DNA of 64,000 nucleotides, taken from the NCBI RefSeq assembly GCF_014843845.1, contig NZ_JHQS01000015.1, forward strand, positions 186,001-250,000, given 5' to 3'. Positions 49,917-53,919 of this stretch are shown here, piece by piece (positions within the stretch are counted from its first letter, which is position 1; each line of letters opens with the position of its first letter). The notes under the pieces were generated by a model. The model had not been told where the DNA came from. It worked only from the letters and a program-made list of their open reading frames with translations, and made no database searches. This DNA comes from Mesorhizobium amorphae. Its GTDB lineage: Bacteria; Pseudomonadota; Alphaproteobacteria; Rhizobiales; Rhizobiaceae. The translations under genes were made by a program, and so were the position numbers.

Positions 49917-50150
49917 ATGGCAATGGACGCGCACGACATCGAACGGCTAATCAAGGAAGGCATCCCGGACGCCAAGGTGACGATCCGCGACCTCGCCGGC
50001 GATGGCGACCACTATGCGGCCGAAGTGGTGGCAGAGAGCTTTCGCGGCAAGAGCCGCGTCCAGCAGCACCAGATGGTCTATGACGCGCTGAAGGGCAATA
50101 TGGGCGGCGTGCTCCACGCACTCGCCCTACAGACCAGCGTCCCGGACTGA
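49917..50150 (+). CDS. BolA-family protein
   Basis: 77 residues with the BolA fold: DIERLIKEGIPDAKVTIRDLAG, then HYAAEVVAESFRGKSRVQQHQMVYDALKG with the conserved His of the variable loop and the final helix. BolA proteins bind [2Fe-2S] clusters together with monothiol glutaredoxins of the CGFS type; that partner is encoded by grxD at 53584. Start ATG at 49917 or two codons later. In many alphaproteobacteria grxD follows directly; here three minus-strand genes lie between. Confidence 0.93.
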   Translation: MAMDAHDIERLIKEGIPDAKVTIRDLAGDGDHYAAEVVAESFRGKSRVQQHQMVYDALKGNMGGVLHALALQTSVPD

Positions 50151-50168: not shown

Positions 50169-51368
50169 TCAGATCTTTACCAGCATCGCCGTCAGGTACA
50201 TGAAGCCAACTCCGGCCGCCAAACCAGCCATCGCGCTCGGTGCGAGCAAGGCGCGTGTGCCGTCGGTCCGCTGACGAAGCTGCATCGACACGAGCTCGAC
50301 GATCACCTGCAGGATTGCCCCGGCGCCGACCGCCAGCGCCAGCGCCGACCATTGCGGGGCATAGGCAAGGCTGCCGATCCACAGGCCGATCACGGCGGGG
50401 CCGCCCGCCAGCAGCGTCAGCGCGGCGAAGGTCCGCAATGGCGGCCGTTGCTTTAGGATCGGGGCGGCAATGCCGATACCCTCGGTGATGTTGTGCAGTG
50501 TGAAGCCGAGTACGAGGAAGGTGCCCAGCCCCGCCGCGCCCGAGGCGAAGGCGGCGCCGATCGCCAGCCCTTCGCCGAGATTGTGCAGGCCGATGCCGAG
50601 CGCGATGAAGGTGGCCAAAGCCAGGCCGGTCGGCGTTCCGCTCCGCCGGCCAGCGGCCATCAGCAGCAGGAAACTGGCTGCGGCGGCAAGCACGATCATC
50701 GTCGGTCCCTGGAACAGGGCGGCGGCCTCGCCGGCCAGTTCGAACGCATCCTCCAGGGCATCGACGAACAGGAAGGCGAGCAAGCCGACAGTGAGCGACA
50801 GAAGGAAGTCCATGCCGCTGCGTCCAACGCCGCGGAGCGCGGGATAGAACATCAGGCCGATCGCCACGGGCAGGATGCCGACGAAGGCGCCAAGCACCGC
50901 CTGCGCGGCGAAGCTCAGCGAATCGCGTGTCGGCGTTGGTACGGCGACGGCGATCTCATGCCCGAACGTCGTCCCGGTGCTGGTCACGACGTTGATCGCA
51001 TGCGCCTCTCCCAGCACCCAGGGATATGGCAGGCTGATCCAGGCCGTGGCGCCGCGCGCGATCGGTCCCGGCGGATCCTGCGTGAACTGCCAGTAGGCAT
51101 CGTCGACCTGGACCTGCGCGATGGTCATCGGTTCCGATCCGCCGGCTCGGATGAGAACGCGGATGCCGTCCGCCCCCAGGATCGTCCGCTCGAAAGTGAG
51201 GTTCTCGACCGCCGGCGCGCCATTGCGGAAGCTCGACAGCGGGTCCGAGGAGACCAGCCAGGCGATGGCCAGCCCGAGCACGACGAGCGGCAGCGCGACC
51301 CAGAGCAGATAGGCCGACCTTGGGCGGTCGGCGCGCGTGTCGGCGGAAGTCCGGCTCAGATCGGTCAC
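50169..51368 (-). CDS. ZIP-family metal transporter with extra periplasmic domain
   Basis: 399 residues. An N-terminal membrane anchor (YLLWVALPLVVLGLAIAWLV) is followed by about 110 residues likely outside the membrane and beta-rich (DDAYWQFTQDPPGP, WISLPYPWVLGEAHAINVVT), then an eight-helix ZIP domain. The metal-binding helices are clear: ALGIGLHNLGEGLAIGAAF and GFTLHNITEGIGIAAP, with the H-N-x-x-E pattern of ZIP transporters for Zn, Fe or Mn. It overlaps the multicopper oxidase gene by four bases, so a metal oxidised or sequestered by that enzyme is a plausible substrate. The added domain is unusual for ZIP proteins. Confidence 0.88.
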   Translation of the reverse strand: MTDLSRTSADTRADRPRSAYLLWVALPLVVLGLAIAWLVSSDPLSSFRNGAPAVENLTFERTILGADGIRVLIRAGGSEPMTIAQVQVDDAYWQFTQDPPGPIARGATAWISLPYPWVLGEAHAINVVTSTGTTFGHEIAVAVPTPTRDSLSFAAQAVLGAFVGILPVAIGLMFYPALRGVGRSGMDFLLSLTVGLLAFLFVDALEDAFELAGEAAALFQGPTMIVLAAAASFLLLMAAGRRSGTPTGLALATFIALGIGLHNLGEGLAIGAAFASGAAGLGTFLVLGFTLHNITEGIGIAAPILKQRPPLRTFAALTLLAGGPAVIGLWIGSLAYAPQWSALALAVGAGAILQVIVELVSMQLRQRTDGTRALLAPSAMAGLAAGVGFMYLTAMLVKI

Positions 51369-52495
51369 GACACGGCCTCCACGACGTCGAACATGCCGGA
51401 CCAGCCGAGTTCAGTGAATTCCGACTGGTGAGGATGGAACATGTAGAGCCCTGGCTCATGCTCCCGGAAATGGAACTCGAGGATGCCGCGCTCGGCCTGG
51501 CACTGGGTGATCAAGTCGACCGTCTTGAGCGTGGGCGTGAGCGTCGTACCCTGATTGTAGTAGTCGAAGAAATTGGCATGCAGGTGGAAGGAGTTGATCG
51601 GGTCGAACTCGACGACATTGACGAGATAGATGCGGACCGGCTTGTCCTTCAGCACCCGGATCGGCTTCTTCGCATAGGCGTGAGCGACCGTGTTGACTGC
51701 GTAGACCTCGTTCTCATTGTCGAAGTTGGTGTCGAAGGCATTCATGACCATGACGAATTCCTGCCAGCCGGCATTCTCGGGCGTGCCGAGCAGGCGCGAG
51801 CGGGCGACCGCTTCGTGCTCCGGATGCCGGGCCGGATCGGGGTCGATCACGAAGGCGCCGTACATACCCTTCTGGATGTGCCGTTTCAGCGGTAGGGCGT
51901 GGCAGTGATAGAGATGACAGCCAAACGGCCTGGCATCGAACTCGTAGACGAACTCCTCGCCCGGCCCGATCAGGCCGGCGCCTGGAACGCCGTCCATGCG
52001 CGCGGCATGGATGCCGTGAAAATGCATCGAATGCGGATGCGAACCCTGGTTGCGGAAGACGATCTTCAAGCGCTCACCCTCGGTCGCACGTAAGGTCGGC
52101 CCCGGCACGCGGCCATTGTAGGTCCAGGCCGGGAACATGATGCCCGGCGCGATCTCTATCTCCTTGTCCTCGGCCGTGACCTCGAAGGTGCGAAGCGTCC
52201 GCCCGTCCGGCAGCATCGACACCGTCCCGGTATACCAGTCGCTCAGCAGCTTCGACGGATCGAAGCCGTTGCGGGCGTCATCGACCTCGCCGACCGTGAT
52301 CATCGAACCATGGGCCGAGAGATGCGCCGGCTGCGCTTCAGCGGCAGCGGCCGCCGGCATCTCGTGACCGGCGTGGCTTGTCTGCCCGCGGGCGGCACTC
52401 GCCGCGACCGCCGTGCCGCCGGCAGCCATAAGGCCACCGGCCAGAAGCAGCCTTCGATCGAGCTTTCGCTCCAGCAAGGATTTCGTTTCGCGCAT
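51365..52495 (-). CDS. Two-domain multicopper oxidase, Tat-exported
   Basis: 376 residues. A Tat-type signal (KLDRRLLLAGGLMAAGG) is followed by a His/Met-rich strip and two cupredoxin domains. Domain 1 holds the type 1 copper set and part of the trinuclear site: HPHSMHFHG (153-161), H197-C198-H199, H206 and M211. Domain 2 has only trinuclear-type ligands, H304/H306 and H354/H356, with Pro replacing the Cys. That is a C-type two-domain oxidase, not a nitrite reductase, since NirK lacks the H-C-H pattern. It could oxidise Cu(I), Fe(II) or Mn(II). It is coupled to the ZIP gene. Confidence 0.88.
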   Translation of the reverse strand: MRETKSLLERKLDRRLLLAGGLMAAGGTAVAASAARGQTSHAGHEMPAAAAAEAQPAHLSAHGSMITVGEVDDARNGFDPSKLLSDWYTGTVSMLPDGRTLRTFEVTAEDKEIEIAPGIMFPAWTYNGRVPGPTLRATEGERLKIVFRNQGSHPHSMHFHGIHAARMDGVPGAGLIGPGEEFVYEFDARPFGCHLYHCHALPLKRHIQKGMYGAFVIDPDPARHPEHEAVARSRLLGTPENAGWQEFVMVMNAFDTNFDNENEVYAVNTVAHAYAKKPIRVLKDKPVRIYLVNVVEFDPINSFHLHANFFDYYNQGTTLTPTLKTVDLITQCQAERGILEFHFREHEPGLYMFHPHQSEFTELGWSGMFDVVEAVS

Positions 52496-52543
52496 GCCTG
52501 CGTTCCTCCAGATCGCGGCAAGGATAGCGTATGCTTCAAGATT

Positions 52544-52555
52544 TAGCTATAGCTA
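52544..52555. promoter_or_regulatory. Palindrome TAGCTATAGCTA upstream of the oxidase gene
   Basis: A perfect 12-base palindrome in an AT-rich pocket about 50 bases before the multicopper oxidase start. The AGCTAT unit is also repeated in tandem. It is a candidate operator or -10 region; no known regulator site was matched with confidence. Confidence 0.4.
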
Positions 52556-52613
52556 TATTCGGCAGCGGCCAATTGACGCCGGACAGGGTAGACGAAAGCT
52601 TTTCTTTGGGAGG

Positions 52614-53420
52614 CTACCCCGCCGCAGGTCTCTTCGTCGAGACGGAGATGATCGGCCCCGCCGGATAATGTCCGCCGACGATCATCCGCTCGCCACCCGA
52701 CAGCGCCGAGACCGCGCCGTCGAGAAACAGCGCGTTGGGGCAGCCGAGCGCGTCGCGAAACAGCCGTGCGAAGCTGCCAAGGCTGACCGCCGAGCGCGAG
52801 ATCGCCAGCACGACCGTATTGCCGTCACGCACGCCGACACCGTTGCGGATGTAGCGCGACGTGCCATTCGGCTCGAAGCGCGGGTGAATCTGGCCGTCGA
52901 TGACCAGCATCGGCCCGGATTGCGTGGCAAACGCCACATCCGGCCTGGCGGCGGCATAGGCGCTCGCCTCCATGACCGCCGCCCTGCCATCCTTGCCGAT
53001 CAGAAACACGCCGTTCGGCTTGAGGAAGAAGTTGCCCTCGCCGTCGGCGAGGTTGAGCGGCGATTTTTGAATACGATCCTCTATCAGAAGGCCGACCGGC
53101 GTCAGGTCTTCGTGGTACATGCCGCCATTCATGGCGAGCAGCACCGGCCTGCCCTCACCCGCCATCGCTTTGTCGAAAGCCTGCAGCGAACCAAAGGGCT
53201 TGTCATCGGCGCCGTCATGGAAGACGCCGATGCTGTTGGTGCGAAGGTCGATCTCGCAGACGACATAGGACACGGCCTCGAAGCCGACATCCCGGCACGG
53301 TGCCGGCAGTTCGCCGCCGACGACCAGCGGCGGCGGCGCGGGGCGCCTGGACCACCAGGCCAGAGCCATCGCAGCCAGCAAGATGGCGATCAGGATCGCG
53401 GCGCCATATCGTCTTTTCAT
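52614..53420 (-). CDS. Phosphodiester glycosidase (NAGPA/DUF2233) family protein
   Basis: 268 residues with an N-terminal signal anchor ([17 protein letters not shown]), so the domain should face the periplasm. The NAGPA-type fold is shown by [63 protein letters not shown] and [12 protein letters not shown]. Relatives remove or cleave phosphodiester-linked sugars, and bacterial homologues may modify exopolysaccharide or wall polymers; the actual role is unknown. It lies about 120 bases upstream of the oxidase gene, with its own spacing, so co-transcription is possible but not certain. Confidence 0.85.
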
Positions 53421-53583
53421 CACGCCCCGGAGAAAGCAGTTGGCTCAGATGCTTGGCCCAACATCGGCGATCCTTTGCGCCATTTCCGCGGCGGCGGCGC
53501 AAACATCTTGTTTCGGTCAACCTATGGGTTTATTTGATGGCTATGTTTCGAGCCTGACTCCCACAGGCGTGAAAGGATTCTCC

Positions 53584-53919
53584 ATGAGCGGTATCAACGA
53601 CTACATCGACAGCGAAGTGAAGAGCAACGACGTGGTGCTCTTCATGAAGGGCACGCCCGGTTTTCCGCAGTGCGGTTTCTCCGGCCAGGTGGTCCAGATC
53701 CTCGACTATATCGGGGCCGACTACAAAGGCGTGAACGTGCTCGACTCGGCGGAATTGCGCCAGGGCATCAAGGAATATTCCAACTGGCCGACCATTCCGC
53801 AGCTCTACGTCAAGGGCGAGTTCGTCGGTGGTTGCGACATCGTGCGCGAGATGTTCCAGGCGGGTGAACTGCAGACGTTCCTCGTCGAAAAAGGCGTCAG
53901 CGTCAAAGGGGCCGCCTGA
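53584..53919 (+). CDS. grxD: Monothiol glutaredoxin, CGFS type
   Basis: 111 residues. The monothiol active site C-G-F-S is in [14 protein letters not shown], with KGTPG before it, [19 protein letters not shown] for glutathione binding and [11 protein letters not shown] at the end. Grx4-type proteins carry [2Fe-2S] clusters and pair with BolA, here encoded at 49917. The ATG at 53584 gives the standard N-terminus; a longer frame upstream is not needed. A short hairpin with TAGTGCA / TGCACTA arms follows near 53926. Confidence 0.96.

What the first reader, a model, noticed from the sequence alone, without database searches (positions are those of the whole stretch)
50169..52495. Coupled ZIP transporter and C-type multicopper oxidase as a possible oxidase-permease metal system
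The genes overlap by four bases. The ZIP protein has an extra periplasmic beta-rich domain after its first helix, and the oxidase is a two-domain enzyme with type 1 copper only in domain 1. Oxidase-permease partnerships are established for iron (Fet3/Ftr1-type), but a ZIP-type partner with an added docking-like domain would be a different system.
Basis: partly seen in the sequence, partly recalled or inferred. Interest (0 to 1): 0.65.

Follow-up and report, generated by a model that had tools for sequence, protein, structure and literature searches.

The report
Manganese-regulated oxidase and metal-importer gene pair
A soil bacterium carries a two-gene cassette, a secreted copper oxidase and a metal importer with an extra archaeal-looking arm, that is inherited as a unit across very different microbes and appears to be switched by manganese-sensing regulators, suggesting an oxidase-assisted metal uptake system that still has to be tested.

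Summary
MCO (51365-52495, -) and ZIP (50169-51368, -) overlap by four bases. The ZIP carries a helix plus beta-sandwich before a normal 8-helix core. The oxidase has a type 1 copper site only in domain 1 and a Tat signal. The pair is obligate where sampled: all 25 oxidase-bearing genomes among 397 Hyphomicrobiales, and all 8 among 381 alphaproteobacteria (own genome in both), have the ZIP next door. The only family ZIP without oxidase in these samples lacks the extra domain (n = 1). The pair recurs in cyanobacteria, Actinomycetota, Bacillota, Deinococcota and haloarchaea.
Two results change the reading. (1) The extra domain has an archaellin/ArlF-like fold (Z 12.0, 1.5 A). (2) Of the 80 nearest loci, 79 have an MntR-type or Fur/Mur-type operator upstream (controls 1-2% each), and mntR is divergent neighbour in 27; farther away the boxes thin out. 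So the likely cargo is manganese (or iron) rather than copper.
The pairing itself is in print for ammonia-oxidising archaea, with a Fet3-like copper model. New, within the papers searched, are the breadth, the domain's fold and the Mn-regulator link. Docking, cargo and oxidase substrate are inferred.

The parts
51365..52495 (-). Two-domain (type C) multicopper oxidase, 376 aa, Tat-type signal
   Evidence: ORF; Pfam Cu-oxidase_3 8.9e-26 and Cu-oxidase_2 7.3e-19; PDB 7rab E 2e-169; invariant ligands and RR
52382..52495 (-). Twin-arginine (Tat) type signal region of the oxidase, residues about 1-38, R14-R15 invariant
   Evidence: 14 of 14 rows; tatA (and tatC) genes near the pair in two Bacillota plasmids; the end of the signal is estimated
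51863..52033 (-). Type 1 copper ligands H155, C198, H206, axial M211 (Leu in several homologues) and half of the trinuclear-cluster histidines
   Evidence: alignment; site roles recalled
51428..51586 (-). Domain 2 HxH motifs (H304, H306, H354, H356) without a type 1 Cys
   Evidence: alignment
51365..51368 (-). Four-base overlap of the oxidase stop and the ZIP start
   Evidence: sequence; same overlap in 69 of 78 modelled loci
50169..51368 (-). ZIP-family transporter with N-terminal extra module, 399 aa, GTG start
   Evidence: PF02535; model
51249..51320 (-). Extra N-terminal membrane helix, residues 17-40
   Evidence: model
50949..51215 (-). Extra beta-sandwich domain, residues 52-140; archaellin/ArlF/ArlG-like fold
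   Evidence: FlaF 4p94 Z 12.0, rmsd 1.5 A, 88 residues; FlaG 5tuh_B Z 11.7; profile hit to archaeal pilin 8fk7 E 1.5e-4
50175..50921 (-). Eight-helix ZIP core with H262-N263-xx-E266 and H292-N293-xx-E296
   Evidence: BbZIP 8j1m Z 18.1, rmsd 5.7 A, 257 residues; residues invariant in 14 rows
52541..52558 (-). MntR-box-like operator (one mismatch in the core), starts 63 bases before the oxidase ATG
   Evidence: (L096); conserved island in 11 aligned Mesorhizobium-type promoters

Best explanation
The two genes form a mobile oxidase-permease metal-acquisition unit that is switched on when manganese (in some lineages perhaps iron) runs short. Steps: (1) MntR, or in other lineages a Fur/Mur-type or DtxR-type repressor, leaves the operator upstream of the oxidase when its metal is scarce [operator-like sites and neighbouring regulators shown; repression inferred]. 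(2) The oxidase and ZIP are made in coupled fashion from overlapping genes [arrangement shown; coupling inferred]. (3) The oxidase is exported by Tat and loaded with copper [signal shown; export inferred]. (4) It docks on the archaellin/ArlF-like arm that the ZIP holds out in the periplasm [arm and fold shown; contact inferred]. (5) There it acts on metal at the mouth of the ZIP, as Fet3 does for Ftr1, and the ZIP core carries the metal in; the most likely cargo is Mn [inferred].
For: Obligate pairing: 25 of 25 oxidase genomes among 397 (order) and 8 of 8 among 381 (class) carry the adjacent ZIP. Arm and oxidase go together: in the order sample the one family ZIP without oxidase (G541) is a 248-aa core without the arm. 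Regulation: of 80 nearest loci, 46 have an MntR-type box and 41 a Fur-family box within 300 bases upstream (plus 30 inside the gene), 8 both, 1 neither; random windows of the loci 1.9% and 0.9%, shuffled upstream sequences 0.9% and 0.9%. mntR adjoins in 27 of 80, and 26 of these 27 have the MntR box. The two box types need at least three switches on a quick oxidase tree. In 12 of 19 pair-bearing plasmid regions that I viewed, a DtxR/MntR-family regulator adjoins (in one with one gene between); 7 of these 12 were checked by Pfam, 5 rest on annotation. In Rhizobium the Fur-type repressor Mur answers to Mn and represses sitABCD and mntH (PMC5575495, passages). In Pseudomonas putida grown with Mn, the wild type held 59 times the cell Mn of a mutant without two Mn-oxidising MCOs, and the authors name Fet3-like coupling as a possibility (PMC3798386, abstract and section 15).
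Against: No direct evidence for docking, transport or oxidase substrate. Box patterns and thresholds were set after I had seen the promoters. Outside the nearest 80 loci the boxes thin out: 13 of 20 further order/phylum loci (19 of 26 before leaving out the window's own and five repeats of the 80; two of the 20 lack upstream sequence), 3 of 19 plasmid pair regions, 1 of 7 class loci. In the window's own genome mntR (70% identical to Ensifer MntR) adjoins mntH, but that promoter has no good box (best 3 mismatches). Fur-family boxes and DtxR-family regulators could mean iron. Metal-resistance genes are a minority neighbour: of the 80 loci a MerR-type regulator cluster in 14 (identified by eye), a P-type ATPase in 11, PCuAC or SCO in 6, and several plasmid regions lie among copper or heavy-metal genes. 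Well-supported branches force fewer switches of MntR box than the tree shows (1 against 4). Mn(II) is hard to oxidise for a low-potential type 1 site, and ZIPs are known for divalent ions (both recalled).
Confidence: 0.45

Rival explanations
1. Filter model: the ZIP imports Mn(II) (or Zn) unchanged, and the oxidase removes competing Fe(II) and Cu(I) at its mouth by oxidising them, so that Mn-starved or oxidatively stressed cells do not take up iron by mistake.
For: Same obligate pairing and Mn-type regulation; Fe(II) and Cu(I) are usual metal substrates of multicopper oxidases (named in PMC7785015); ZIPs carry divalent ions (recalled).
Against: I know of no precedent for an oxidase acting as a filter (recalled, not searched); nothing here separates it from the hand-over model.
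Confidence: 0.2
2. Copper unit, as proposed for ammonia-oxidising archaea: the oxidase turns Cu(I) into Cu(II), which the ZIP imports.
For: In Nitrososphaera viennensis MCO1 and the adjacent permease rise under Cu limitation (log2 0.81 and 1.33) and the authors propose this (PMC7785015). PCuAC and SCO genes (and copC/copD in Ensifer) lie near the pair in Ensifer and Shinella plasmids; PCuAC or SCO genes are in the flanks of 6 of the 80 loci.
Against: MntR/Fur-type operators and mntR neighbours in alphaproteobacteria, DtxR-family neighbours elsewhere; mntR is far commoner in the flanks (27 of 80) than CopC, CopD, PCuAC or SCO (6 of 80). Whether the archaeal ZIP has the same arm could not be tested.
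Confidence: 0.13
3. Iron unit: a bacterial Fet3/Ftr1 analogue for iron using a ZIP permease, controlled by Fur or iron-type DtxR regulators.
For: Fur-family boxes in 41 of 80 loci, like the engineered Magnetospirillum Fur operator (PMC4506495, passages); DtxR-family regulators with FeoA domain over cut-off in Arthrobacter, Paenarthrobacter and three haloarchaea.
Against: MntR in 27 of 80 loci and MntR boxes in 46; in Rhizobium the Fur homologue studied is the Mn regulator Mur.
Confidence: 0.12
4. Co-regulated neighbours without physical coupling: an oxidase for oxidative or metal stress and a separate importer.
For: No contact has been shown; translational overlap is common in bacteria (recalled); metal-resistance genes are in the flanks of a minority of loci.
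Against: Total co-occurrence in the 32 distinct sampled genomes with the oxidase, recurrence across phyla, and absence of the arm in the one sampled ZIP that has no oxidase.
Confidence: 0.1

Closest known systems
MCO1 - zinc/iron (ZIP) permease pair of ammonia-oxidising archaea (NVIE_000600/NVIE_000590)
   Same: Two-domain oxidase gene next to a ZIP permease gene; Fet3-like coupling proposed in print (PMC7785015 section 10; PMC5767755 passages)
   Different: Archaeal, linked to copper limitation; here Mn/Fe-type regulation; the paper says MCO1 was found only in thaumarchaeal genomes; whether its ZIP has the same arm was not testable here
Fet3-Ftr1 ferroxidase-permease of yeast
   Same: Multicopper oxidase paired with a permease
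   Different: Fet3 is a three-domain membrane-anchored enzyme and Ftr1 is not a ZIP (recalled); here a two-domain Tat enzyme and a ZIP with an added arm
Marinithermus hydrothermalis dodecameric MCO (7rab/7rac) and the MCO 3gdc
   Same: Same oxidase family: 7rab E 2e-169, 3gdc E 3e-97
   Different: Solved as enzymes; no ZIP link is stated in the entry titles; their papers were not read
BbZIP (5tsa, 8j1m)
   Same: ZIP core fold, Z 18.1 over 257 residues; HNxxE helix-4 motif kept
   Different: No extra arm; by the alignment this family has His and Asn where BbZIP has Gln and Asp in helix 5, and Ala for a Glu in helix 6 (site roles recalled)
ArlF/ArlG (FlaF/FlaG) and archaeal type IV pilins/archaellins
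   Same: Fold of the arm: Z 12.0 rmsd 1.5 A (4p94), Z 11.7 rmsd 1.5 A (5tuh_B); pilin 8fk7 E 1.5e-4 by profile, including the helix
   Different: Here fused to a transporter, mostly seen in bacteria
Mn(II)-oxidising MCOs of Pseudomonas putida GB-1 (MnxG, McoA)
   Same: MCO activity linked to higher cell Mn (PMC3798386)
   Different: Mn-oxide formers outside the cell; the paper says the mechanism of Mn gain is unknown and names no paired permease in the parts I read

Membership tests
ZIP (SLC39-like) transporters | Eight-helix ZIP fold | tested here: met
   (BbZIP Z 18.1, rmsd 5.7 A, 257 residues)
ZIP (SLC39-like) transporters | Family profile and metal-binding motifs in helices 4 and 5 | tested here: met
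   PF02535 36.1 bits over cut-off 35.1; HNxxE and HNxxEG invariant in 14 rows
Type C two-domain multicopper oxidases | Two cupredoxin domains, type 1 copper only in domain 1, full histidine set of the trinuclear cluster | tested here: met
   site assignment by recalled pattern
Type C two-domain multicopper oxidases | Trimeric (or higher) assembly | not testable with these tools
   7rab homologue is a dodecamer by its title
Copper nitrite reductase | Whole-family score (TIGR02376 cut-off 296.3 bits) | tested here: not met
   81.6 bits
CopA/CueO copper-resistance oxidases | Family cut-offs (TIGR01480 478.95; PRK10965 525) | tested here: not met
   93.5 and 36.1 bits
Fet3-Ftr1 ferroxidase-permease | Three-domain oxidase with FTR1-family permease (recalled definition) | tested here: not met
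   Two-domain oxidase and ZIP permease; the works-like claim stays open
MCO1-ZIP pair of ammonia-oxidising archaea | Adjacent two-domain MCO and ZIP genes | tested here: met
   against PMC7785015
MCO1-ZIP pair of ammonia-oxidising archaea | Common descent of both genes, same ZIP arm | not testable with these tools
   No thaumarchaeal ZIP sequence was reached (viral-contig scan found no relative; genome scan spent; not accepted)
Archaellin/ArlF-like domain | Fold | tested here: met
   Z 12.0, rmsd 1.5 A, 88 residues to FlaF; unrelated rows follow at Z about 8.5 and below
Archaellin/ArlF-like domain | Curated family cut-offs (Pfam Arch_flagellin, NCBIfam ArlF) | tested here: not met
   Best Arch_flagellin E 0.018 in 1 of 19 (15.8 bits against 29.5); ArlF 14.6 bits against 110
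MntR/Mur regulon | Operator upstream and Mn-dependent repression | tested here: inconclusive
   Operator-like sites in 79 of 80 nearest loci, fewer beyond; response to metal not tested

The most novel reading that the evidence does not exclude
A manganese oxidase-permease: a Tat-exported two-domain oxidase docked on an archaellin-like arm oxidises Mn(II) and hands Mn(III) to a ZIP channel under MntR/Mur control, a Fet3-Ftr1 analogue for manganese built from other parts and spread by gene transfer between bacteria and archaea.
Probability: 0.2. Interest if true: 0.85.

Novelty: new variant of a known kind. Interest (0 to 1): 0.6.

Why it matters
Oxidase-assisted metal import is established for iron in yeast. 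A ZIP-based version shared by bacteria and haloarchaea and tied to Mn regulators would be a second design of that principle. It would also offer a concrete answer to why some microbes oxidise metals (uptake rather than energy or waste), and give the MCO1-permease pair of ammonia oxidisers a testable counterpart in tractable bacteria.

Tried and rejected
Nitrite reductase and copper-resistance oxidase identities: scores far under cut-offs. Chance adjacency: rejected. A larger operon: of the clusters listed for the 80 loci (the 25 largest of mechanical ORFs, many of them antisense frames that I did not check one by one), mntR in 27 loci is the largest sense gene that I recognised besides the pair; a MerR-type regulator cluster follows in 14. 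Thaumarchaeal comparison: the A3 scan of viral contigs matched 27 stretches, none a relative. The oxidase model was poor (pLDDT 60.2) and was used only to list PDB titles. Complex prediction: not possible with single-chain folding. Box regulon in the own genome: the core pattern occurs 0 times forward and 2 reverse, one at this promoter (reversed-pattern control 35 and 31), so no regulon could be read off; of the other copy (C92) I read only the first 100 bases of the locus. Papers searched for the pair or for its Mn regulation; no listing showed it for bacteria. Rodionov 2006 on alpha Mur/MntR boxes is not held. Searches for the M. hydrothermalis structure paper did not find it. Searches for printed box sequences led only to the Fur operator; the MntR consensus is recalled.
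Full report
What is there. The two ORFs are on the minus strand: oxidase 51365-52495 (376 aa) and ZIP 50169-51368 (399 aa, GTG start), sharing four bases. The genome is a 7.36 Mb assembly and the window is G000:C129:186001-250000; the closest named loci are Mesorhizobium (99% to M. amorphae).

The oxidase. It is a two-domain multicopper oxidase. Type 1 ligands lie in domain 1 only; the histidines of the trinuclear cluster and the twin arginines are invariant in 14 rows from several phyla. Its closest solved relative is the dodecameric enzyme of M. hydrothermalis, 7rab (E 2e-169; title), then 3gdc. The genome's four other matches at E 0.001 or better are partial (32-43% over about 96-144 residues, in frames of 466-525 aa) and look like other MCO types.

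The ZIP. AlphaFold2 with 36 sequences gives pLDDT 81.6: helix 17-40, beta-sandwich 52-140 with ten-residue block pLDDT 77-94, then eight helices. The core aligns with BbZIP at Z 18.1. Motifs HNxxE and HNxxEG are invariant in 14 rows. With one helix added before a ZIP core whose first helix starts outside (recalled topology), the arm is periplasmic.

What the arm is. VIA-align gives FlaF (4p94) Z 12.0, rmsd 1.5 A over 88 residues, FlaG (5tuh_B) Z 11.7, rmsd 1.5 A over 85, and archaeal filaments at Z 7-11, some with large rmsd because of the helix; unrelated folds start at Z 8.5. Foldseek ranks the archaeal pilus 8fk7 right after the ZIPs (E 4.5e-3). A profile of 19 arms finds 8fk7 at E 1.5e-4 among 177,635 PDB sequences, with FlaF at 0.4. 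Pfam and NCBIfam give only sub-threshold hints (Arch_flagellin E 0.018 in 1 of 19; ArlF E 0.028 in one haloarchaeal ZIP). I read it as an archaellin/ArlF-like module, a fold used for contacts outside the archaeal membrane (recalled for ArlF). Its identity to the window (31-78%) is close to that of the ZIP core (41-80%) over 13 relatives.

Recurrence. In genome contigs 371 stretches encode relatives; the best 80 were kept and all 80 have the ZIP directly downstream; 69 of 78 modelled have the 4-base overlap. These are the nearest loci, so I sampled genomes without regard to the pair. Of 397 Hyphomicrobiales genomes 26 have the ZIP (E <= 1e-30) and 25 the oxidase (E <= 1e-60); all 25 are adjacent by coordinates. 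Of 381 alphaproteobacterial genomes 8 have the ZIP (E <= 1e-25) and the same 8 the oxidase, adjacent. The own genome is in both, so 32 distinct genomes have the pair. Four of the 26 ZIP matches and one of the oxidase matches in the class sample carry one in-frame stop. The exception, G541, has a 248-aa ZIP core with neither arm nor oxidase. In the phylum sample 18 of 398 reach E 1e-10: four have the whole pair (G000, G112, G336, G387), one (G180) a ZIP remnant of residues 222-400 with no oxidase in its locus, and 13 match only over the ZIP core and have no such oxidase in their loci. In plasmids 148 records match the ZIP (E <= 1e-5) and 144 the oxidase (E <= 1e-50), with equal counts in nine genera that both lists show. 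I viewed 20 plasmid regions chosen for spread: 19 have the pair in this order, one (Aquibium) only a 48-residue ZIP fragment. Phyla: Pseudomonadota, Cyanobacteriota, Actinomycetota, Bacillota, Deinococcota and haloarchaea.

Insertion. In the window the pair, with a NAGPA-family gene, lies between bolA and a monothiol glutaredoxin gene. In 9 of 12 other genomes of the genus bolA and the glutaredoxin gene lie within about 425 bases of each other; in the other 3 a NAGPA gene lies beside the glutaredoxin gene (in one of these bolA is outside the 1.5-kb flank). None of the 12 shows the pair within those flanks. So it is an accessory cassette.

Regulation. Upstream of the oxidase I saw two kinds of palindrome: one like the MntR box (E. 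coli consensus recalled) and one like the operator crystallised with Magnetospirillum Fur (PMC4506495 passages). Counted with fixed patterns in 300 bases upstream plus 30 inside (patterns and thresholds set after seeing the sequences), 46 of 80 loci have the first, 41 the second, 8 both, 1 neither; random windows of the loci (1,730) give 1.9% and 0.9%, mononucleotide shuffles (2,320) 0.9% and 0.9%. mntR adjoins in 27, and 26 of these have the MntR box. The 78 modelled oxidases form 33 clusters at 85%. On a quick tree the two box types need at least three switches; supported branches alone force 1 change of the MntR group and 3 of the Fur group. In 11 Mesorhizobium-type promoters the box is an island of near-identity in diverged sequence. 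Away from this set the signal weakens: 13 of 20 further order/phylum loci (19 of 26 with the own genome and five repeats of the 80), 3 of 19 plasmid pair regions, 1 of 7 class loci, three of these seven with a variant palindrome (noted post hoc). But in 12 of 19 plasmid pair regions a DtxR/MntR-family gene adjoins, in Arthrobacter, Paenarthrobacter, Rhodococcus opacus, Rubrobacter, Deinococcus (one gene between), three haloarchaea and four alphaproteobacteria; seven of the 12 and the own MntR carry PF01325 and PF02742, the other five are named by annotation. No such gene is annotated beside the pair in the three cyanobacterial, two Bacillota, one Rhodococcus and one haloarchaeal regions. In the own genome the MntR homologue (C127) is divergent from an Nramp-like gene, whose promoter lacks a good box.

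Other neighbours. Of the 80 loci, a MerR-type regulator is in the flanks of 14, a P-type ATPase of 11, and PCuAC or SCO of 6; 71 of the 80 have near-full flanks. So metal-resistance surroundings occur, but less often than mntR.

Reading. Mur of Rhizobium represses Mn importers when Mn is present (PMC5575495, passages). An operon whose operators are of MntR type in some relatives and Fur/Mur type in others most simply belongs to Mn acquisition. Its parts, a Tat-exported oxidase and an importer with a docking-type arm that were not found apart in the sampled genomes, most simply form an oxidase-permease. Shown: parts, pairing, fold, operator-like sites. Inferred: docking, cargo, substrate, direction. 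The hand-over of oxidised Mn and the filter against Fe(II)/Cu(I) are not separated by any evidence here.

Prior knowledge. ZIP next to MCO1 in ammonia-oxidising archaea and a Fet3-like copper idea are in print (PMC7785015, section 10 read; PMC5767755, passages). Mn oxidation raising cell Mn, with Fet3-like coupling named, is in PMC3798386 (abstract and section 15). An animal Fet3 orthologue is in PMC12218971 (passages). I found no paper linking this pair to Mn regulators or describing the arm in the listings of searches; the library lacks most subscription papers.

Noticed in passing
49917-50150 and 53584-53919: bolA and a monothiol glutaredoxin gene flank the insert; near neighbours in 9 of 12 other genomes of the genus.
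   Followed up: partly
52614-53423 (-): NAGPA-family (PF09992) gene between the oxidase and the glutaredoxin; present or absent independently of the pair (not found in L007-L009, which have the pair; found in L163, L164, L166 without it in the flank).
   Followed up: partly
L136:1498-2244: A 248-aa ZIP core of this family without arm and without oxidase, next to a CcdA-like gene (by eye): a natural control.
   Followed up: partly
L084:6719-7682 and L145:2204-2380: tatA (and in L084 tatC) genes near the pair in Peribacillus and Cytobacillus plasmids, as if the cassette brings its own export for the Tat oxidase.
   Followed up: no
L087:6133-6555, L139:5137-5547, L142:5331-5555: A plastocyanin/azurin-like copper protein follows the pair in three haloarchaeal plasmids; could be an electron or copper partner.
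   Followed up: no
L083:6194-6613 and L144:1944-2405: A Rieske (2Fe-2S) protein gene follows the pair in Rhodococcus qingshengii (directly) and Rubrobacter (one gene between).
   Followed up: no
L149, L151, L153 upstream of the oxidase: Variant palindrome GTAGC-N4-GCTAC in place of the MntR-type box in three class-level alphaproteobacteria.
   Followed up: no
L142:5725-7166: A TMEM165/GDT1-family gene (possible Mn exporter, recalled) with a second metal-dependent regulator beside the pair in Halorubrum.
   Followed up: no
flanks of 14 of the 80 genome-contig loci, e.g. L033:2920-3619: A MerR-type metal regulator gene recurs near the pair.
   Followed up: no
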